Origin: Tremella fuciformis
Lineage: Eukaryota > Basidiomycota > Tremellomycetes > Tremellales > Tremellaceae
Length of the DNA: 64,000 nucleotides
Direction: 5' to 3'
NCBI GenBank assembly: GCA_032768795.1
Contig: CP136492.1
Coordinates: 2,418,001 to 2,482,000 of the forward strand
Notes under the pieces: model-generated
What the model saw: only the letters and a program-made list of their open reading frames with translations
What the model was told of the DNA's origin: nothing
The model's database searches: none
In this document: piece by piece, positions 51,019 through 63,785 of the stretch
Numbering within the stretch: position 1 is the stretch's first letter
Layout of the letters: each line of letters starts with the position of its first letter
Program-made: the position numbers and the translations under genes

Positions 51019-52568
51019 ATGGCGCCAATCGCTGTCCAAGTACCGGCAGAGGTAGCTGAAGCACCAAAGAAGACAAAGGCTGGTTCAGCTGGCCTGTATT
51101 CGACCGGGTCCAGCAACCCCATCGTGGAATCTGGCAATGGGCTATACTACACCTTATCCGACGGCCGGGTGGTGCTCGACGCCGTGGCGGGCGGCGTGGC
51201 GGTCAACTCGATAGGTATGGCCAACGAAGAAGTCGTGCAGGCTATGGCGGACCAAGCTCGCAAGCTGGGGTTTGCGTACCATCAGATGCTGGTCAACGAT
51301 CGAGGGGAGGAGCTTGCAAGCTTCCTTACCAGCAGGAGTGGCGGTGCCTTTGCGAGCGCTGCCTTCCTCTGCTCTGGTAAGTATACGGGACCCGGGACTC
51401 CTGCCCATGCTGAGGTCAGGATCCGAGGCGATGGAGGCCGTTCTGAAAGTGTGTCGGCAGTACTGGGTCGAGAAGGGCCAGACTCAGCGCAAATACATCA
51501 TAGGCCGCTTCCCCAGCTATCACGGAAACACCCTGGGCGCTCTGGCCGTGAGCTGCTCCTGTTTGCCCTTCCTGGACGCGAGACTGAAGACGCAGGTGAC
51601 ATTCATCCCACAACGTCGAGACATCTACACCAACTTCTTCTCCGACTTTTGCCAACACGTCCCCACGCCACTGTACAAGCGAAACCACCTTGAAGGCGAG
51701 AGCGAAGAGCAATACTCTGAACGCATGGCCCAGGAGCTCGAAGCCAAGATCCTGGAACTGGGGGCGGAAAACGTCATCGCTTTCGTTGCCGAAACCGTGT
51801 CTGGGGCATCGGTGGGCGTGATGCCCCCGCCGAAGGGGTACTTCCCCGCCATCGACCGCGTCTTGAAGAAATACGACATCCTGCTCGCCCTCGACGAGGT
51901 CAAGTCTGGCTCGGGCCGCACTGGTGAGCTGTTCGCCTATCAGGCTGTGGGCGAGGGGGTCAAGCCGGATGTGCTCGCCATGGCGAAAGGCCTTGGCGGC
52001 GGTTACGTGACCATATCTGCCGTGCTTGTCTCGCACAAGGTGGCCGAGACGATCAGCGCGGGCGGCTGGCGTAACAGCCACACGTATCAGAATCACCCGG
52101 TGGCATGCGCCACTGCTCTCAAAGTGCAGCACATCATTGAACGCGAAGGACTGCTTGCGAACGTGAGGGAACGCGGTGCGGAGCTGCTGGCGGCTCTGCA
52201 AGCTAGCTTGGAAGGGGTGAAAGAGGTATTCGACGCTCGTGGCAGGGGTTTAGTAGGTCTTCAGAAACCATGGAGCTGGTCCTAAGAGACAGTTCCTCAG
52301 CGTCGAATTTGACACTCCCTCAACGCTCACGCCTCGCATGGCCGAACGGGTCAAGGACAGGTGCCTCAAGAACGGCCTCGTTGTGTTGGCCCTCTTGGGC
52401 ATCATTGACGGTAAAGAAGGGGACAGCTGTACGATTGCGCCCGTACGTATCTCCGTTCAAGGCTTGCTAGAAGCTGAGACATAGGCGTACAATGTCACTT
52501 CGGAACAGGTGCAGGAGATTGCGAAGCTGTTTAGTCGCAGTGTCAAGGAGGTGGTTGCAGAGTTGTAG
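51019..52568 (+). CDS. Class III PLP aminotransferase
   Basis: Exons 51019-51376, 51420-52252, 52293-52442 and 52485-52568 join to 474 aa. Motifs include FLCSGSEAMEAVLKVCRQYW at the cofactor phosphate site, GRFPSYHGNTLGALAVS, the ring-binding aspartate in LALDEVKSGSGRTGE and the Schiff-base lysine in AMAKGLGGGYV. It is distinct from the GABA-T gene. Relatives act on omega-amino acids, such as beta-alanine:pyruvate transaminases, and the 2-aminoethylphosphonate transaminase type cannot be excluded from sequence reading. It sits between an SDR and a nitrilase, so an amine/amide catabolic role is likely. No presequence is visible with this start. Confidence 0.87.
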
Positions 52569-52705: not shown

Positions 52706-53968
52706 TCAAGCAGTCGACGCAACCTGGACGGTCGAGATGTCGGGGTAGAGGTCGAACCGTCTTTGTGGGATCAAGGGGATCTGCGCACGCGCACTGGTGA
52801 CCATAGCGGGGTCTGATCATCAGCACGAAGTCATTCTCATAGAGATGACAACGCACCGAGCTCTACCTGGATGATACCCTGGTCGAGTCCCGCATCTGCA
52901 ATGACCTTGCCAAGAGGGTCGACCGCCATCGAGTGAGCGTACACGACAAACTGAAAGTCAGCCGACCGCCAACACTCTTCGTTTGGGACGCACCGGCGCC
53001 TTCTCATCGCGGGCACAGCTGGCAGTAACGACGTAGACCTGGTTGTCGAGGGCCCTGGCTCGTCAGACTCGAGGAGCCATTGACGCTCGAGACACTCACC
53101 GCGCACGCTGCAGAAGCTCCCAGTGCAGCTCACCAGTCGGACGGCTGAAAGCAGCGGGGTAGAACATGGCCATGCAACCTAGCTAAGTCAGCACTGCACT
53201 GCTTGAGTCCACGGAACCCACCCTTGCGCGCTGCCAAGACGGCCATTTCCGCGAAACGAATGTCATAGCACCTGCGTGTCAGCTGCCATCCGAGTCCTCC
53301 GCACAAGATAGCATACAGCCCAATTCCAAACTTGCCAAAGGCTAGGCGTGTCAGCATCCGCCTTCTGCTCAAGACGAGTGGACGTACGAGTCTGGAAGGT
53401 TGTCAACCACGAGCCGTGGGAGATGTTGTCGCTCTCTTTGAAAGTCATCTGCGGGAGGGACACGTCGAAGAGGTGGATCTTGCGGTACTTGGCCACCAAT
53501 GCCCCGTCTGACGAGTACACCGTGGAGCAGTTGTACCGCTTCCCCTCTGCAATCTCGGGAATGCTGCCGCCCAACATCCACACGTTGAACTCCTTGGCGA
53601 CGGCCGACATCTGTCGCACGGTGAAGGCGTCGGCCGGCCATTCGCTCTGCGCGCTACCAGCTTCCGGCACTGGCTCGACATTCTTCTTGATGTCCTCGAT
53701 GGCCTGAGGTTACTACCGGCCCGCAGTGGGGCCACCCAAAACTGCTCACTAGTCCGGTGTTCCACACTTCCTGCTCATCAGCTCATGTCCGGGCATGGGA
53801 GGATGATGTGCTCACTGGCAGCACTACCATCTGCAGCTCCTTGCCCTCCGCTCGTTTCTGCTCGACGGCCCGCTTGACGAACTCGCGCATCGTGGCGCAT
53901 GTTGTAGCCTTGTCCTCGGCGGCGGTGGGTAGCTGAAGCACAGCGAGGTTGACAATAGGGGCAGTCAT
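52706..53968 (-). CDS. Nitrilase-superfamily amidase (Nit2-like)
   Basis: Several short exons from ATG 53968 to TGA 52706, introns of about 43-50 nt. The Glu-Lys-Cys triad is present across splice joints: Glu in VVLPEVWNTG, Lys in AKYRKIHLFDV and Cys in FGIGLCYDIRFAEMA. The core continues [35 protein letters not shown] and ends ARAQIPLIPQRRFDLYP. This is the pattern of omega-amidase and deaminated-glutathione amidase (Nit2/Nit1), which hydrolyse the amide of 2-oxo acids formed by transamination. The adjacent class III aminotransferase, head to tail across 138 bases, fits a transaminase/omega-amidase pair. A beta-ureidopropionase is a less likely alternative. Confidence 0.85.
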
Positions 53969-55550: not shown

Positions 55551-57971
55551 ATGTTCTTCCTTGTCCCACTGGTTGTCAGCGCTCTAACGGCGGTCCACGC
55601 CAGAAGTTATGCCGACTTCCCAATCGACTTCTTCCCTCCCAATCCCAACGCCAACTGGTCTACTGCCGAGTACCAGGCCTACCTCGGCCACCCTGGCAAC
55701 CTATCGTACCCCTCAAATTGGGGCCGGAAGCGTGATGCCGATTGCGACGGTCTGGGCAGTGCCATCAACGAGTTCTGCGGTGACGTGGTGAGTGATCGCT
55801 GTGGGGCAGATCAGGACTCTCACTTATGCCAGTGCCCATGTGGACTTAATCCTAGCGACTCCACGCAGATGTACTGCGTGACCGGGCGGTGTCAAGCAGA
55901 GCCAGGCCCTTCTCTCACGTCTTGCACCGTCGCCACTGAGGCTACCGACTGTCCCGCTGGGCAATCTTGTGGTTGGGATCACGACCCTAACCTTGACACG
56001 TCGAGCACCCCAGATGATCAGAAAGCCAAGAGTGGGTCTAGTCCCCCCATTGTCCTCAGTACTAGCTGACCGGTCACAGCTGTCTGCGGTGGCAAGTGGG
56101 CGGGGTGTTCTCAGCAGAGTTCGTCTTGTCAATCAGTTCATGGGCTCCATTGATGTTGAGGCGACTGCACCGGACAATATGTCTGCGTGGACGGAGAGTA
56201 CGACAGTCTGCTCAAAGGACAAGATGACCACCCCAATTGTGATGGAGCGGATGTGAGTCTGCCTCACCTTTACTAGCAGGCACACACTGAGCCGCAGGCT
56301 GGCCAAGCCTTGATCTGCGTCTATGGGGAATCCGATGCCAACACCTTCTGCCAGCAGAACGACCGACTCTGGAACCTCGGATGCGGCGAGAGTCGGCGCA
56401 ACTCTGAGATATCGGGCGTGTGCAACGGCATGTTTGTGCAGGGCTGCACGATGGCGACACCTGAGGCGTACACCGACCTTGACACCGAATGCTTCTGGGG
56501 GTACTGCATTGACCGCAGCGACGGCCCTGTACCTGGACGTGAGCCTCGACTTGTATACTGCTGACGGCGACGCTAACAGCTCTAGCTTATTGCACTTGGA
56601 AGCCGGGGTGAGGCTGTCCTATGCGATGATCCAAACATAGAATCCTGCTGATGTTTCAGCCCTTGTGACACGAATGATGATTGTGACAACGGCCTGCTCT
56701 GTGCGCCCAACGGCTACTGCGGCGGTCCGGGCGCGTCTTGCTACGACAACAACTACTGCAGCGACCCGTACCCCTGCCAGGACCAAGGCAACGGAGAGAG
56801 CATGTGCATGGGTGAGCCTACATCGAACATCGTCAAGGGAGCAGCTGACAGCCACACAGACGTCGACGCTGCTACGGGAGGGACATCACCAGCGGTAGCT
56901 TACACGGCCAACTCGGGAGTCAGCACCGTACGTCCGCATCACTTCTTCACCGAAGTGTGAGTGTGACTCATCGCGATACAGATCTGCCACACCGACTCTG
57001 ACTGCGGTTCAGGTACGCCTTGGCTCAACTGCTCGCGAGGGACATATGTGGCTGAGCTCCAGTGGCATACTGCGGCGGCGTGAGGTCCGGCTCGACCGAG
57101 CCAGGCGTCTGCGGTGGGGAGGGTGCAAGTTGCAGCCTAGACAGCAGCTGCGCCACCGGCACATGTCTCGAGAACAACGAGTGCAATGAGTGGCAAGACG
57201 CGACGCAGGACGAGAACGACCCATGCGACTTCAGCACCCAATGCACGGGCGATCTCGTGTGCGCGGACGACGGCACGGGCACGTCGACGTGTCGGCAGGC
57301 CTCTACCCTCCGCGCACGGGTCTGTCAGCCGGGCATCAGCGACACTTGTAGTTCAGACCCGACGTACTCGCAGTGCGGGACCCCTGCCCCGGGGTCGGAC
57401 GAAGCGGGTGTGTGCGGCGGCGGTGGGACTTACTGTTCCAGTGCGTATAACCTTCTGGGCCTCGCCTCGCTGACATTGAAGCGGACTCGGACTGCTGGAC
57501 GCAATCGTGCAACTCTGGGCTGTGCGAGTGGGGCGCCTCCGCCCCACAGGCGACGACCAACATAAATCGAAGGCGGTTCAACGATGCCATGTGCCCGCGA
57601 GGCAAGACCCTCTGCCCAGTCGGGCTCAATTCGCGCGCCGGCGGCCAGCTCAGCATGTCAGGCTACGAGGTGAGACCACAAAAGGCGGTATGACAGGTTG
57701 CTAACGGCCAGTGCATTGACACCTCTTCGACCATTGACTCGTGTGGCGGGTGCATGTTTGGGTCGCAGTCGATCGGACGGGACTGCACTGACATTGACAA
57801 CGTGTCTGACGTGTCCTGCCTCAAGGGCAGCTGCCGTATCAGTGAGTCACTCTCGTGTCCAGTTGAGGGTTCTCACGCGCAGACGCATGTGTGTCTGGCT
57901 ATGCTCCTTCGCTCAACGGCACCTCATGTGTGCCTAGTACCGAGCAGCGTCGGTCTCGCAGATGGTGGTAG
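55551..57971 (+). CDS. PriA/CPL1-like cysteine-rich secreted protein
   Basis: A multi-exon gene with a clear signal peptide (MFFLVPLVVSALTAVHA) and then many Cys-rich modules, each often on its own exon (for example CDTNDDCDNGLLCAPNGYCGG and CSLDSSCATGTCLENNEC). The C-terminal region, CPRGKTLCPV, GYECIDTSSTIDSCGGC, GRDCTDIDNVSDVSCLKGSCRI and CVSGYAPSLNGTSCV, matches the CPL1-like domain of PriA and Cryptococcus Cpl1. These proteins are secreted and disulfide-rich; the biochemical function is not established. An intron of about 35 nt near 56.14 kb is the least certain joint. Neighbours are unrelated enzymes and a transporter. Confidence 0.85.
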
Positions 57972-58172: not shown

Positions 58173-59903
58173 CTACACCAGATCCTTCATCTCCTCCACT
58201 ACGACCGGATCAGTCCCCTTCATGATGGTAGAAGGGGTCTCGAGATACCCTTCATCGCCGCTCTCAACCACTTGGGTCAACGGCTCGCGCTCGCCGCGAC
58301 TGTACATTTTGTCGTCCTCGATGTCCTGAATCGTCAAGCCTTTAGTCTCGGGGATCATGAGCGTAATGAGCGCCGCAAGGGCCATGATGCCACTGAAGAG
58401 CCCGAGCACGCCGGGCAGGCCGATCTTCTCGACGATAGTGCCGAAAGCAAAGGCAGTGAGGATGGCACCTGCTTTGCCGGAGGCGGCGGCGATACCGTGC
58501 GCCGAGCCTCGGACACGGGTAGGAAAGACCTCGGTGGGGATGAGGAAGGTGGTGCAGTTTGGCCCGGCGTTGAGGACGAGTTGTGCGATGGTGAAGAGCG
58601 TCATGAGGCCTCCGATGGGGACGTTGTGCATGGTGGACACGCCGGCCCAGATGGCGTAGAGGATGGCGGTCAGGAGGCAGAAGATAAATTGTTGTCTCAC
58701 GCGACCCATAAAGTCGGGCAGGAAGATGCCGATGAAGAAGCCGGGGAGGTAGCCCTGGGCTGTCAGTACTGACGATGTAGCCGAACGATCAGCTCACCGC
58801 CGACTGCACAATGATGTTCCCCACTGCTGTGCGGAAGAGGGTGTCGTACTTGGTCTTGCCCTTGGCAAAGCCGATGTCGGCGAGGATGATCGACTGGTTG
58901 TAGTTGATACCATAGAAGGCGATATCGCTGATGTCAGCAACAAATGAGCACTGAGGGGATGCCCACTATAGGAACCACACGGCCGAAACTGCAAACAGTG
59001 TCTTGGCGTGCCGCAAGTCGCTGAAGTACTCGCGGAAGTCTTTGAACTGCTGTGAGAGACCGCGACGGCCACTGCCCTTGGCGAGACCAGTCTCTTTGGA
59101 CACGTCTGCTTGTCAGCTTGGGGCGTTAAGAGATCTTCAGGGGCATACACTGCTCGTATGGCGCGGTCTCCTTCATCGTCAGGCGAGCGTAGAGGGATAG
59201 GGCGGCAGGGACAACACCGAGACCGAGCAAGACACGCCAGACCCATTCGAGATTCTTGATATCGCGCTCAATCGCATGGCGTCCAGCCGCAAGCAGGATC
59301 GTGTTGACGACACTGGAGGTGAAGCCGCCGACACCGATACACGCGAATACCGAGAGGACTAGCTTCGCCCGACTGCCAAACGCCGACTTCTCGGCTGCCA
59401 GGGTGGAAGACATGGGATAGTCTGCCAAGAGTCAGCCTTACATGGCGTTGGCGAGGGTGCTGGACTCACCGCCACCGATACCGAAACCAGTCACGACTCT
59501 CCATACAGCGAGCCAAGCCACGACGCCGGTGGAAGAAAGACCTTTCCATGGAAGCAAGACGACCATGAGAGTGCCGAAGATGGTCATGATTAGTTCCTTG
59601 CCGTATACCTTGTGCCGTCCGAGTGCATCGCCAAACAGACCGAAGCCCAGCTGGCCAACGACCATGCCGATGGACAGAGCACCCTTGATTTCGTCGCCGG
59701 GGATTGCGGGCACGCTGCCCTTTTCAAAGTACAGATCGCCGATCATGGGCACGACTGGGAGTCAGACGGTTGTGGGATAGATGGACAGCTGGCTTACCCA
59801 GACCAATGACGATGTTGAGGTAGCCGTCTGTGAAGAAGCCCACACCGGCCATGAGGAGAAAGCGGATCCGAGCTGAGAGGCTCGCCGATGAGTCGGACGA
59901 CAT
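58173..59903 (-). CDS. Pho84/Git1-type phosphate:H+ symporter family transporter, 504 aa
   Basis: Exons 59903-59798, 59754-59470, 59421-59149, 59105-58967, 58927-58798 and 58754-58173 join in frame. The PHS-family marks are [24 protein letters not shown] in helix 1, [49 protein letters not shown] across a splice joint, and [19 protein letters not shown]. Twelve helices are expected, in the plasma membrane. Known relatives carry phosphate or glycerophosphodiesters. Next to C-P cleaving enzymes it could import the phosphonate itself or recover released phosphate. A CACGTG element lies 461 bases upstream of its start. Confidence 0.9.
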
Positions 59904-60517
59904 GACTGAAGACCGGTAAGGGGCTGTCGAGTCTCTGGTACGGTGGAAGGGTGGATTGTTGCGTCGAGCGCTGTGTCTCCTGAGGTATGACTACGTCGGT
60001 CCGATCTTCTTTATAGGCAACGAGCCAAGGGTGCTCTTTCGTGAGGTCGCTGTCAAGGCGTTTGTCTCATGAACGTCCGTGTCGCTCGTGCTGTGACTCC
60101 AATTCCAAGCCCGCGATCTGCGCAGACATTCCGGCGCACGATGTTGCAGCAAAAAGGCGGTCGAGAAGTGCGCACGGCGCCCGTAACGAGACCACTGTCA
60201 TTCGACGGTGAGAAAATTGCGGGGTTCAGTGTCAAATCCGAGACTGAAGTGGTGGAGTTGGAGAACATTCGGCGTCGTCGATCCTAGAAAAAGAACAGGA
60301 GGTGCACGTTCGTGACCTGTCCTGTCTGGCCCTCCGAGTGTTCCGAGCGATGGCTTAGATATCCACGTGGTGGCGGTCTCATCGCGAATTTGCCTCCGAG
60401 GACAGCAGACTCTTGCGGGCCAGAGCATGCAACAGAGTGAAGAGGAGGCTTGAACGCAGAGTATTTCGTTGTTGACCATTTATGTGCATGCGAGGAAAGA
60501 AAGGATGATGTACAGAG
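59904..60517. other. Intergenic, transporter promoter region
   Basis: No gene. Contains the CACGTG motif and the 3' end of the fused phosphonatase gene. Confidence 0.45.
60364..60369. promoter_or_regulatory. CACGTG palindrome, possible Pho4/NUC-1-type site
   Basis: Perfect CACGTG, the core of phosphate-starvation bHLH factors in ascomycetes. Other bHLH proteins share it, so the assignment is an inference from the phosphate-related context. Confidence 0.35.
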
Positions 60518-62455
60518 CTACACATTCAACACCACGTCAAACACGTCAAAGTTGCGCCATGCCCCTTGCTTCTCTGCTGACCGAGAAACATTGGCAATGA
60601 GGGGGATGCCTTGCTCGCTCAGACCGCCATGGCTGCGGAGCCTGTGACCCTTGAGGTTCGCCAAGTCGTGATCTGCACGCTTGGCACCGAGCACGGCGCC
60701 CTTGATTGCCACAGCGACGATGTCCCCCTCGCGATCCAGGGGCATCTCAAAGAGCGCCGCACCCTCAGCCCCGGTCATGACCGCCTCAATCTGCTCGAAC
60801 GTCTTGAGGTGCTCGATCATTTGGCTGACTTTGGTCTTGTCCGTGACATGAATACGGACAAACGAGCCGAGTGCACCGTGGTGCCGGACAAACGGGTCGG
60901 TGATGGGGCAAATAACCCTCAAGGGAGCCGAAGGGAAAGATGCCTCCAGCTCGTCCTGGACATACAGTACATTCGGCGAGCCGTCATCGAGCGACTTGTC
61001 GCTCATGCCGTGGTCGCCTGTGATACCGACCGTCGCACCCAGCTGCAAGAGCTTGCCCACTCGCTCGTCTAGCGCACGGAAGAAGTCGTTCGACTCCTCG
61101 GAGCCGGGTGCGTGTTTGTGCTGCACAAAGTCGGAGAGGGTGAGGTAGAACAGGTCCGCCCGCCCTTCTTGTAGGAGCTTGATGCCGGCGTCCAAGACGT
61201 AGATCGAGAGGTCTCCAGAGTACTGAGGCGGGGCGGGTCGGCCGACATATGCTTCCACGTCCTCGATGCCGTTCTCGGCGAGCGTGCACTGGTTGGCGTA
61301 CTCGGAAGAGAAACAGATGTCCCCTTGGGACGGCTGGAGGCCGTGCTGAATCAGTCGGCGCAGCTTGTCTTTGGCCGTGACTGCTGCGACTCGCACGCCT
61401 CGGCGGGACATCTGCTCGAGGATAGTAGAGCCTCGGAGGAGCGAGTCGTCCAATACCAAACGCTCTTCGCCGGTTTCAGCGTCGAGGTAGAAGTTGCCGG
61501 CGATTCCGTGTTTGGCGGTAGGGGCGCCGGTGATGATTGAGCAGTTGTTGGGGTTGGTGAATGTCGGCATGGCAGCTTTGGCGACGACCGAGAAACCTGA
61601 CTTGCACATCTTCCCGATGTTGGGGAGGATCCCATCGGCGATACCTTGCTCGAGGTACTCGGGATCGAAGCCGTCCACGCAGATGGCAACAGTTGGCCGG
61701 ACGGGCAAGCGGTATGTCCTGTCGTGCAGGGTGATGGAAGATCGAGACGCTGAGCGATCAGCAGAGCACCTCCTTCAACTTGCAGCACTCACTGAGGAGG
61801 CTTTTGACGGCCATGTCGGTGTAAGCCTCCAGACCAGGTACGGTGATCCCCTCCGTTTTGGCCTCATCATCCCATCGCCTCACGGCGAGCTTGTCCCGCA
61901 GCCAAGGGTCTTTCTTCGCCTCTTCAATCTGGCGCGGATTGAAGGGTCCGCCCTGTCACGTTAGCAGGACCAATCAAGACCTCTGTGATAGCCCACCTGG
62001 TACTTCAACGTCACCTTGCTGGTCGGGCTCAACTTGTCGTAGTACCCAGCTTCGGTCGCTGAAAGGTATCGCTTCGCCCAGACATGACTCCCGACCAGCT
62101 CGCACACCTTGGCGGAGAACCCGATATCCCTCAGAAACTTCTCCCCAGTGACTTCATGGGATCCCTTGCCGAGAAAAGTTCCGTCCGGCGCGAGCATGGA
62201 AGGCAGTTGGTCGTAGTTGGACCGGGGGATGAATCGCCCGACGTCATGCAACAGCGCAGCGAGCACCGTATCGTCGTCCGCACCGCCCTGTACAGCCAGA
62301 CAGGCACACTGTAGGGAGTGCTCGAGTTGAGAGACGGCTTCGCCGAGATAGTCGCCCTGGCCTTGGGCGGCGAGGTACGAAAACAGCGTCTCGACTGTCT
62401 TCTGTGCGTGGTGGCGCACGGAGGGAAGCGCAGTGGCGGACATGGTGTATGTCAT
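60518..62455 (-). CDS. phnZ-phnA: Fused PhnZ/TmpB-type HD oxygenase and PhnA-type phosphonoacetate hydrolase
   Basis: Exons 62455-61997, 61952-61793 and 61749-60518 join in frame to 616 aa. Residues about 1-205 are a mixed-valent diiron HD domain: Y36/E39 in YLGEAVSQLEH, H46, H70-D71 in LLHDVGRF, H100, H124 in GSHVWAKRYL and the RRWDD aspartate at 181-182. The Tyr/Glu pair marks PhnZ/TmpB, which oxidatively cleave 1-hydroxy-2-aminoethylphosphonates to glycine (or betaine) and phosphate. Residues about 215-616 are an alkaline-phosphatase-superfamily PhnA: D232 in ICVDGF, Thr nucleophile T271 in TFTNPNN, SDFVQHKH, GDHGMSD and RSHGG. PhnA hydrolyses phosphonoacetate to acetate and phosphate. The joining intron (61750-61792) is GTGAGT...CTCAG; without it the PhnA half has no ATG. 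Cytosolic. Confidence 0.85.
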
Positions 62456-62870
62456 CGCTTCAACTGGTGTGTGGCGAACACCCCTCACGACCTCACATTA
62501 TATCAGTCACTGTCTGCCTGAGCTGTGGTCGCGTCACCTTGCGACTCGAGCGCATGCATGAGTGGTGCACAAGTCTGCCGCCGAAGTCGCGTGGAATGAA
62601 AGCCGGAGTCCGCCTTTGCCTGAGAACGTGGGCGGGGTTCGTTTTTACCCGAATTCCGATTGGCGGAATTGGCTGCTAAGCTGAATGCCACCGCTGCGTA
62701 ACCCTAGGCAACTCGTGGTCTTGCGGAAAGCCATTCAACCGAGGGCAGAATGGCATCCGACTCGAGCGCAACCGGGAGGAGCGCCAAGGGAACGACATAA
62801 AAGCCGGGAAGGGATTGGCGGATAGCTTCTTTGGCGCTGCCACTTCCCATCCCACATCACCACTACGGAC
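62456..62870. promoter_or_regulatory. Bidirectional promoter of the phosphonate genes
   Basis: 415 bases between the divergent starts of the fused enzyme and the PhnY-like dioxygenase. It contains a symmetric element at 62652-62670 and a TATA-like CATAAAAG at 62796-62803, about 68 bases before the plus-strand ATG. Coordinated expression of both enzymes is likely. Confidence 0.6.
62652..62670. promoter_or_regulatory. Inverted repeat AATTCCG-N5-CGGAATT, possible Zn2Cys6 site
   Basis: Seven-base perfect arms around five bases, containing CCG-N5-CGG, an everted CGG pair of the kind bound by fungal zinc-cluster dimers. It lies mid-way in the divergent promoter. Confidence 0.45.
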
Positions 62871-63785
62871 ATGTACACCCTCACACAAGACCAGCTGGAT
62901 CAATACGCCAAGGACGGCTACCTCCTCGTCAACGCCCAGGAGCACGGCCTGTTGGCGGATCCGCGCTCCCTGCCCATATGGTCGGAGGAAGTGCGCAACT
63001 GGCCGCTTGAGCAGAGCGTCGGGAAGTGGATGCCGTACTTCGAAGACACGTCGAGCGGGAGGCAGATCATGCGCACCGAGATGTTCGCCGACTACCACCC
63101 TGGACTGGACGGTCTCATTCGCGGCGAGGGGCTGCTAAGCATCCTGAAACAGCTCAGCGGACAAGTGAGTGCTCTTTTCAAGGGGAAATGGCACCGCTTA
63201 CGCTACACCCAGGACATGCAGCTGTTCAAGGACAAGATCAACTACAAGCTGCCGGGCGGGGGCGGCTTCGCCCCGCACCTCGATGCACCGGCATACGACC
63301 ACATCAGCCGCGTCGAGCACGTCACTGCGAATATCGCCATTCACCCAGCTACGAAAGAGAATGGGTGTCTCGAAGTCGTGCCCGGCTCGCACAAGGGCGG
63401 CGTGGAGCTTATCCCGGGGGGCGGCCACATTGCCCAGTCGTGGATCGACTCTCACGAGTGGACGTCTGTTCCCCTCGAGACGGGCGACATCCTGTTTTTC
63501 GGAAGTCATCTCGCTCATCGGAGTGGACCGAATGGGTCCGCCAACCCCCGCGCGATGTTATATGCCACGTACGCTGCGCAGAGCGATGGGCCTGAATTGC
63601 GGAAACAATACTACGCTCATCGGCGCGAGGCTTTCCCTCCCGACTATGGTCAGTCTGGGTTGCAGGACAGCGAATGCGGGAGCTGATGAGCAGAACGCGT
63701 CAAGGGTGTGGACTACTCGGCCGGCTGGCAGAGGTACGCCTTTGCCGCGCCGTTTTCCAATCAAGGCATCACTGCGGCAAGCTGA
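62871..63785 (+). CDS. phnY: PhnY/TmpA-type 2-oxoglutarate dioxygenase (PhyH family)
   Basis: Exons 62871-63164, 63213-63648 and 63694-63785 join to 273 aa, close to the usual PhnY length. The first intron (48 nt) is in frame and could be mistaken for coding; removing it restores GQDMQLFKDKINYKLPGGGGFAPHLD. The iron facial triad is H120-X-D122 (FAPHLDAPAYDH) and H200 (AHRSGPN), with R211 (NPRAM) for 2-oxoglutarate. The C-terminus, RVKGVDYSAGWQRYAFAAPF, is typical of the PhnY/TmpA group. These enzymes hydroxylate C1 of 2-aminoethylphosphonate or its N-trimethyl form, making the substrate of PhnZ/TmpB. The divergent neighbour carries exactly that activity, which supports the assignment. No targeting signal; cytosolic. 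Confidence 0.88.

What the first reader, a model, noticed from the sequence alone, without database searches (positions are those of the whole stretch)
58173..63785. Compact fungal organophosphonate catabolism locus
Three adjacent genes encode a Pho84-type transporter, a C-P cleaving enzyme with PhnZ/TmpB and PhnA domains, and a PhnY/TmpA-type dioxygenase. PhnY plus PhnZ is an established two-step oxidative route from 2-aminoethylphosphonate to glycine and phosphate, and TmpA plus TmpB does the same for the trimethylated form. PhnA handles phosphonoacetate, the end of a different route. Active-site residues of all three enzyme domains are visible. Bacterial pathways of this kind are known; a clustered version in a basidiomycete, with its own transporter, is not one I know. 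The locus would let the fungus use phosphonates as phosphorus source.
Basis: partly seen in the sequence, partly recalled or inferred. Interest (0 to 1): 0.92.

Follow-up and report, generated by a model that had tools for sequence, protein, structure and literature searches.

The report
Fungal double C–P-cleaving enzyme cluster
A fungal gene trio, found side by side in many moulds as well, encodes a dioxygenase, a protein that joins two unrelated domains whose known relatives cut carbon–phosphorus bonds, and a phosphate-type transporter; it is predicted to let the fungus feed on phosphonates as a source of phosphate.

Summary
Nine GT–AG introns of 39–48 nt give three intact genes at exactly the stated ends: a Pho84-like transporter, a 616-residue HD–PhnA fusion and a PhyH dioxygenase. 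The PhnA half passes the NCBI phosphonoacetate-hydrolase cut-off; the HD half is nearest PhnZ. A TmpA reading finds no support, and TmpB is not the nearest relative. The cluster is not special to one basidiomycete: the fusion occurs in Kockovaella and many Ascomycota, with PhyH next door in 12 of 13 genomes whose tags could be compared and the transporter often close by. No HD–PhnA fusion was seen in 80 bacterial HD loci or 24 bacterial PhnA loci. Legionella-type bacteria carry MFS–PhyH–HD operons. PhnZ His62, reported to orient the substrate hydroxyl, is Arg in 57 of 61 ligand-intact fungal fusions but His in 78 of 80 bacterial relatives. Most likely PhyH hydroxylates a small phosphonate, the HD site splits it with O2, and PhnA independently hydrolyses phosphonoacetate. 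Whether the oxidative substrate is 2-aminoethylphosphonate or methylphosphonate is unresolved. A fungal oxidative enzyme (PhoF) is already known: a new variant.

The parts
58173..59903 (-). Pho84-like (PHS family) MFS transporter, 504 aa, 6 exons (59798-59903, 59470-59754, 59149-59421, 58967-59105, 58798-58927, 58173-58754)
   Evidence: Spliced; TIGR00887 phosphate:H+ symporter 356.9 bits (cut-off 610.3); PF00083; 77% identical to a Tremellales protein and 70% to Kockovaella
60518..62455 (-). HD-PhnA fusion protein, 616 aa, 3 exons (61997-62455, 61793-61952, 60518-61749)
   Evidence: TIGR02335 537.5 bits over cut-off 407.55, TIGR03276 169.8 bits under cut-off 214.6; 72% identical over 98% to the Kockovaella fusion
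61793..62455 (-). exons 1-2: PhnZ-like HD-domain oxygenase part (residues 1 to about 206); all six iron-ligand positions kept, PhnZ His62 replaced by Arg
   Evidence: model of the Kockovaella orthologue matches PhnZ 4MLM at TMt 0.88
60518..61749 (-). exon 3: phosphonoacetate hydrolase (PhnA) part (from about residue 207); all seven metal-ligand positions kept
   Evidence: model of the Kockovaella orthologue matches 1EI6 at TMt 0.94
62871..63785 (+). PhyH-family Fe(II)/2-oxoglutarate dioxygenase, 273 aa, 3 exons (62871-63164, 63213-63648, 63694-63785); H120, D122 and H200 at the expected metal-ligand places (roles recalled)
   Evidence: orthologue model pLDDT 93 with PhyH-fold matches
62456..62870 (.). 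415-bp divergent intergenic region between the fusion and PhyH genes, a possible shared promoter (inferred)
   Evidence: Coordinates

Best explanation
This is most likely a fungal phosphonate-catabolism cluster: its central gene encodes one polypeptide joining a PhnZ-like HD domain to a PhnA-type domain, two unrelated kinds that are predicted to cleave C-P bonds, so that the cluster would release phosphate from phosphonates by two separate routes. Inferred steps, none assayed: (1) the Pho84-like transporter brings in a phosphonate or the released phosphate; (2) the PhyH enzyme hydroxylates the carbon next to phosphorus, using Fe(II), 2-oxoglutarate and O2; (3) the HD site, with a mixed-valent di-iron centre, splits the hydroxylated product with O2 into a carboxylate and phosphate; (4) the PhnA site independently hydrolyses phosphonoacetate to acetate and phosphate. 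The oxidative substrate is most likely 2-aminoethylphosphonate or a close relative (about 0.4), with methylphosphonate next (about 0.3). The Arg in place of PhnZ His62 suggests a specificity different from that of PhnZ.
For: PhnA part: TIGR02335 537.5 bits, over cut-off. The metal ligands named for Sinorhizobium PhnA in PMC7916636 (Asp29, Thr68, Asp211, His215, Asp250, His251, His377) map to the same residues in the window protein, each kept in 67-69 of 69 fusions. HD part: the four solved chains matched are PhnZ (three) and TmpB (one). Iron ligands and the Tyr24/Glu27 loop are kept in the window protein; 61 of 69 fusions keep all six ligands, 66 of 69 the loop residues. The HD part lies on the PhnZ side of branches supported 96/97 and 97/87 and 95/86 and 98/94, apart from TmpB, the methylphosphonate-type HD proteins and the PhnA-linked Burkholderia HD L072. 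Linkage: 12 contig lengths are shared by all three genes, Kockovaella among them. In 7 genomes with tags for all three the order is PhyH, fusion, one unread tag, transporter; in 5 more the fusion and PhyH tags are consecutive (tags read). Bacterial parallels: MFS-PhyH-HD runs in 3 genomes (L025, L106/L121, L107/L122) and HD-PhyH fusions in 3 of 80 HD loci. In print, phnZ sits in 24 of 75 bacterial phnWAY (PhnA) clusters (PMC8154272 Table 1).
Confidence: 0.75

Rival explanations
1. The oxidative pair is a methylphosphonate route: PhyH makes hydroxymethylphosphonate and the HD site turns it into formate and phosphate, with PhnA for phosphonoacetate.
For: The best NCBIfam hit of the dioxygenase is the Gimesia methylphosphonate hydroxylase (191.7 bits; whether the library holds a model for AEP dioxygenase was not checked). 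The PhyH tree joins fungi to the methylphosphonate side at 92/81 and 93/86. The stretch HxDAPAYxxI is shared with the two loci over that model's cut-off, where the six HD-linked gammaproteobacterial proteins read HQDAPAF. Geomyces pannorum P15 used methylphosphonate and phosphonoacetate but not AEP (PMC4133637); Pseudogymnoascus PhyH and transporter homologues are in the hit lists (P0171, P0315), though no fusion row bears that name.
Against: The same model scores the Legionella-type PhyH higher (215.8 bits), so the hit does not discriminate. The HD part lies apart from the methylphosphonate-type HD (98/94) and matches the PhnZ-side residue at 11 of 17 numbered distinguishing columns against 2 (my tally). 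In PhyH the tally is 8 against 2 of 20. Long branches were flagged.
Confidence: 0.3
2. The locus is in essence a phosphonoacetate-scavenging locus; the HD domain is a vestigial or structural part.
For: 8 of 69 fusions have broken HD iron ligands. The 8 PhnA-only fungal proteins that I put in the PhnA tree are interleaved with 9 fusions. Penicillium species are reported to use phosphonoacetate through a 43-kDa hydrolase (PMC4133637 introduction), nearer in size to PhnA alone than to the fusion.
Against: 61 of 69 fusions keep all six iron ligands, and PhyH stays next door in many ascomycetes and on one contig in Kockovaella.
Confidence: 0.12
3. The HD site with Arg for His62, and its PhyH partner, act on a new substrate, for example a hydroxylated carboxyphosphonate related to phosphonoacetate, so that both halves of the fusion serve one substrate family.
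For: Arg at the His62 position in 57 of 61 ligand-intact fusions but 1 of 80 bacterial relatives, and physical fusion to a phosphonoacetate hydrolase.
Against: Glu27, reported to bind the substrate amine (PMC7916636, PMC8177086), is kept. No direct evidence for such a substrate.
Confidence: 0.15

Closest known systems
PhnY*/PhnZ oxidative AEP pathway (uncultured bacterium HF130_AEPn_1)
   Same: A PhyH dioxygenase next to an HD oxygenase; HD ligands and YxxE loop kept; HD part on the PhnZ side of the tree
   Different: HD fused to PhnA; His62 is Arg; about 40% identity; fungal, with introns; Pho84-like transporter alongside. No PhnY* sequence was available for direct comparison
PhoF of Fonsecaea multimorphosa (PhnY-PhnZ fusion acting on AEP and 3-aminopropylphosphonate)
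   Same: A fungal oxidative C-P cleavage route made of the same two enzyme types (PMC10574752 passages)
GmPhnY*/GmPhnZ methylphosphonate pathway (Gimesia maris)
   Same: PhyH + HD pair; PhyH tree neighbour
   Different: HD clade differs; scores far under the equivalog cut-offs (191.7 of 500 and 129.5 of 300)
PhnA phosphonoacetate hydrolase (1EI6, 3SZY) and bacterial phnWAY clusters
   Same: PhnA domain over the equivalog cut-off; phnZ homologues co-occur in 24 of 75 bacterial phnWAY clusters (PMC8154272)
   Different: No bacterial HD-PhnA fusion seen in 80 HD and 24 PhnA loci; no PhnW equivalog found in this genome
TmpA/TmpB trimethyl-AEP pathway
   Same: Two-step oxidative logic; TmpB is an HD relative (E 2.7e-24)
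   Different: No TmpA match named; HD part lies apart from TmpB

Membership tests
PhnA phosphonoacetate hydrolase | Score over the TIGR02335 equivalog cut-off | tested here: met
   537.5 bits against 407.55
PhnA phosphonoacetate hydrolase | Metal ligands including Thr68 | tested here: met
   D, T, D, H, D, H, H at the homologous places; kept in 67-69 of 69 fusions per position
PhnA phosphonoacetate hydrolase | Hydrolysis of phosphonoacetate | not testable with these tools
   Needs an enzyme assay
PhnZ HD oxygenase | H...HD...H...H...D iron ligands | tested here: met
   All six in the window protein and in 61 of 69 fusions
PhnZ HD oxygenase | YxxE substrate loop (Tyr24, Glu27) | tested here: met
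   Present in the window protein; each residue in 66 of 69 fusions
PhnZ HD oxygenase | His62, reported to orient the substrate hydroxyl | tested here: not met
   Arg in the window protein; Arg in 57 of 61 ligand-intact fusions, His in 3, Gly in 1
PhnZ HD oxygenase | On the PhnZ side, apart from TmpB and methylphosphonate HD proteins | tested here: met
   Branches 96/97 and 97/87, 95/86 and 98/94; place inside the PhnZ side unresolved
Phn-HD (TIGR03276) | Score over the cut-off of 214.6 | tested here: not met
   169.8 bits
TmpB | Score over NF049941 cut-off; TmpB clade | tested here: not met
   123.6 of 300 bits; separate clade
TmpA | Sequence match of the dioxygenase to TmpA | tested here: not met
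   No TmpA named among NCBIfam or solved-structure hits; that these libraries hold TmpA is recalled
PhnY* AEP dioxygenase | PhyH fold and metal motif, beside an HD oxygenase gene | tested here: met
   PF05721, H120/D122/H200 invariant, divergent neighbour
PhnY* AEP dioxygenase | Grouping with AEP-type rather than methylphosphonate-type PhyH | tested here: inconclusive
   93/86 for the methylphosphonate side, alternatives p-AU 0.13 and 0.24, long branches; no PhnY* reference sequence was in reach
Methylphosphonate hydroxylase (NF052437) | Score over the cut-off of 500 | tested here: not met
   191.7 bits
Pho84/PHS phosphate:H+ symporter | Score over TIGR00887 cut-off | tested here: not met
   356.9 of 610.3 bits, but by far the best family
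PhoF | PhnY and PhnZ domains in one polypeptide | tested here: not met
   The two are separate, divergent genes

The most novel reading that the evidence does not exclude
Across two fungal phyla, moulds and yeasts share a phosphonate 'Swiss-army' enzyme: one protein with two mechanistically unrelated C-P scissors, an O2-using di-iron site re-specified by a His62-to-Arg swap and a metal-dependent hydrolase, fed by a dedicated hydroxylase and transporter. It would be a new substrate class of HD oxygenase and a main, so far uncharted, eukaryotic sink for environmental phosphonates.
Probability: 0.3. Interest if true: 0.8.

Novelty: new variant of a known kind. Interest (0 to 1): 0.6.

Why it matters
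The review read here (passages of PMC10574752) says that by far the most information on phosphonate degraders is on bacteria, and the passages seen name one fungal oxidative enzyme. A conserved cluster in common moulds and tremellomycete fungi would make fungi players in phosphonate turnover and gives ready targets for knock-out and assay. The fusion ties two C–P-cleaving chemistries into one protein, and the His62-to-Arg swap is a natural experiment on what sets HD-oxygenase specificity. If the substrate proves to be methylphosphonate, it would be a sink for that compound without methane release.

Tried and rejected
Rejected: TmpA-type dioxygenase; myo-inositol oxygenase (not among the solved-structure hits of the HD part); TmpB or the PhnA-linked Burkholderia type of HD; a PhnW-fed phosphonoacetate route in this genome (best PhnW hit 51.1 bits against a cut-off of 400.8); a PEP mutase, the entry to phosphonate synthesis (no match). 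The genome searches read exon by exon, so a much-interrupted gene could be missed.

Led nowhere: scans of viral contigs for the fusion (no relative) and PhyH (five weak relatives at 28–31% identity, not pursued); PHO-box search (one CACGTG at 60364, 11 in the whole window, no significance claimed); telling AEP from methylphosphonate by the PhyH tree; identifying the unread gene between fusion and transporter in ascomycetes (I found no tool that gives context in fungal records). Bacterial PhyH relatives in 12 further loci (L123–L134) have no HD gene in the fetched 12–15 kb. Three of them were read gene by gene; two (L123, L129) have a squalene-hopene-cyclase-like neighbour (naming recalled). 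I labelled these and three similar PhyH proteins 'hop' in the trees without checking each one's context.

Literature: six papers were opened. PMC10574752, PMC7916636, PMC8177086 and PMC12366243 were seen as passages; PMC8154272 as passages and section 16; PMC4133637 as parts 1 and 2 of 3 plus passages. The PhoF paper and the PhnZ structure paper are not held; what is said of PhoF comes from the review. That I found no paper describing an HD–PhnA fusion rests on nine searches of the held open-access library, seen mostly as listings.
Full report
What is there. Spliced, they give a 504-aa transporter (minus), a 616-aa HD–PhnA protein (minus) and a 273-aa dioxygenase (plus). Nine GT–AG introns of 39–48 nt separate the exons. 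Read by eye, the proteins align across the exon joins with those of Kockovaella imperatae, at 70, 72 and 68% identity. The fusion and dioxygenase genes are divergent with 415 bp between their starts; the transporter's start is 614 bp from the fusion's stop.

Families. The PhnA half scores 537.5 bits against TIGR02335 (cut-off 407.55). The HD half scores 169.8 against TIGR03276 (cut-off 214.6), 129.5 against the hydroxymethylphosphonate dioxygenase model and 123.6 against TmpB (both cut-offs 300). The dioxygenase scores best against the methylphosphonate hydroxylase model, 191.7 of 500. The transporter scores 356.9 of 610.3 against the phosphate:H+ symporter model (all). Pfam agrees: HD, Phosphodiest, PhyH, Sugar_tr. 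Among solved structures the PhnA half matches 1EI6 and 3SZY (E 3.2e-108 and 2.5e-107), the HD half PhnZ (E 4.6e-37) and TmpB (E 2.7e-24); the dioxygenase matches other PhyH-type enzymes only, none a phosphonate enzyme by name. An AlphaFold2 model of the Kockovaella fusion (mean pLDDT 89.0, pTM 0.86) matches 1EI6 at TMt 0.94 and PhnZ 4MLM at TMt 0.88. The model of the Kockovaella PhyH (pLDDT 93.0) matches PhyH-fold enzymes at TMq 0.59–0.68 in the 50 rows shown.

Active sites. PhnA metal ligands as named in PMC7916636 (passage) are all present in the window protein. In the HD half the six iron ligands, Tyr24, Glu27, Lys108, Ser126, Thr129, Gln133 and Arg158 of PhnZ are kept, but PhnZ His62 is Arg (roles of Lys108 to Arg158 not all looked up). 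PMC7916636 says the substrate's hydroxyl group is oriented by His62 and its amino group by Glu27, and that changing substrate or residues costs much activity. I aligned the window protein with 68 database fusions, namely the 68 of the 120 rows listed that cover at least 94% of the query. Of these 69, 61 keep all six ligands; among the 61, 57 have Arg, 3 His and 1 Gly. Of 80 bacterial HD relatives 78 have His, 1 Arg and 1 Tyr. The other 8 fusions have lost one or more iron ligands while the PhnA ligands are nearly all kept; some of these may be faulty gene models. The 52 shorter rows were not used in this count.

Bacterial relatives. One locus has an MFS–PhyH–HD run (L025, Legionella sp. MAG, transporter cut by the contig end), one has PhyH beside HD (L092) and one has PhnA nearby (L072); L061 has a 20-bit PhnA-profile hit beside HD. 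Two more MFS–PhyH–HD runs were found in 369 genomes of the class of L022 (L106, L107). Of 24 PhnA loci in 20 of 398 genomes none is fused to an HD domain and one has an HD gene in the fetched flank (L153). In print, phnZ homologues lie in 24 of 75 bacterial phnWAY clusters (PMC8154272 Table 1). The fungal fusion therefore joins partners that some bacteria keep as neighbours.

Trees. HD: 92 rows and a chosen 47 rows. The fungal clade is one group (100/100) on the PhnZ side, apart from TmpB and the PhnA-linked L072 (96/97 and 97/87) and also from the methylphosphonate-type HD proteins L102 and L103 (95/86 and 98/94); its nearest bacterial relative is unresolved, and most bacterial HD proteins on that side had no PhyH hit in their fetched flanks. 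PhyH: the fungi are one clade (100/100 and 100/99). The tree joins them to the methylphosphonate type (92/81 with L092, 93/86 without), but the program warns of long branches, and clades with the Legionella type or with all HD-linked gammaproteobacterial types are not rejected (p-AU 0.13 and 0.24). At columns that separate PhnZ-side from methylphosphonate-type proteins, the fungi match the PhnZ side at 11 of 17 numbered columns and the other at 2 in HD (my tally, five gap columns left out), and 8 against 2 of 20 in PhyH. Several of the eight are shared with the hopanoid-linked control and so may be ancestral. The reference sets are my proxies; only PhnZ among them is characterised. PhnA: nine fungal fusions and eight PhnA-only proteins are interleaved, which fits an early fusion with later HD loss, or truncated models.

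How it most likely works. PhyH hydroxylates the carbon beside phosphorus; the HD half splits the product with O2 into a carboxylate and phosphate; the PhnA half hydrolyses phosphonoacetate; the transporter brings in phosphonate or handles phosphate. The first two steps follow the known PhnY*/PhnZ chemistry (PMC10574752, PMC8177086, passages), the third known PhnA chemistry. All are inferred here. No PhnW equivalog was found in the genome, so phosphonoacetate would probably come from outside. 2-Aminoethylphosphonate is my first guess for the oxidative substrate because of the HD side. The growth record of Geomyces pannorum P15 (phosphonoacetate and methylphosphonate yes, AEP no; PMC4133637 results, though its abstract stresses phosphonoacetate alone) and the PhyH tree point to methylphosphonate instead. 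The His62-to-Arg change allows a third answer.

Noticed in passing
across the window's right edge: L006 1985-3291 minus (window scale about 63985-65291): A D-isomer 2-hydroxyacid dehydrogenase gene (PF02826; exon matches to PGDH-type models) ends about 200 bp from the PhyH stop. PbfF, the bacterial 1-hydroxy-AEP racemase, is of the same Pfam family (PMC12366243 passages). This genome has 32 exon matches to the family, so the neighbourhood may be chance.
   Followed up: partly
P0056, P0058, P0060, P0063, P0068, P0074, P0078, P0085: Eight fungal fusions have lost HD iron ligands while keeping nearly all PhnA ligands: decay of one half of a bifunctional enzyme, or faulty gene models.
   Followed up: partly
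ascomycete clusters, the tag between fusion and transporter: A usual one-number gap in locus tags points to a conserved fourth cluster gene that I did not see in this window.
   Followed up: partly
L021 7902-9365, L022 1163-2488, L080 966-2312: Gammaproteobacterial single proteins with an HD domain followed by a PhyH domain, a possible bacterial counterpart of PhoF.
   Followed up: partly
L121 6679-9472, L122 7229-10026, L025 3-2330: Legionella-type operons MFS transporter - PhyH - PhnZ-like HD.
   Followed up: partly
window 51215-52285 plus: A class-III aminotransferase exon; best NCBIfam model PRK07483 at 285.5 of 485 bits, with only 117.1 of 525 bits to the phosphonate lyase PbfA, so probably unrelated.
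   Followed up: partly
window 53263-53709 minus: A nitrilase-like exon, weakly like deaminated-glutathione amidase (39.8 bits).
   Followed up: no
window about 55551-57970 plus: Cysteine-rich predicted protein in many short exons next to the cluster (read); not examined.
   Followed up: no
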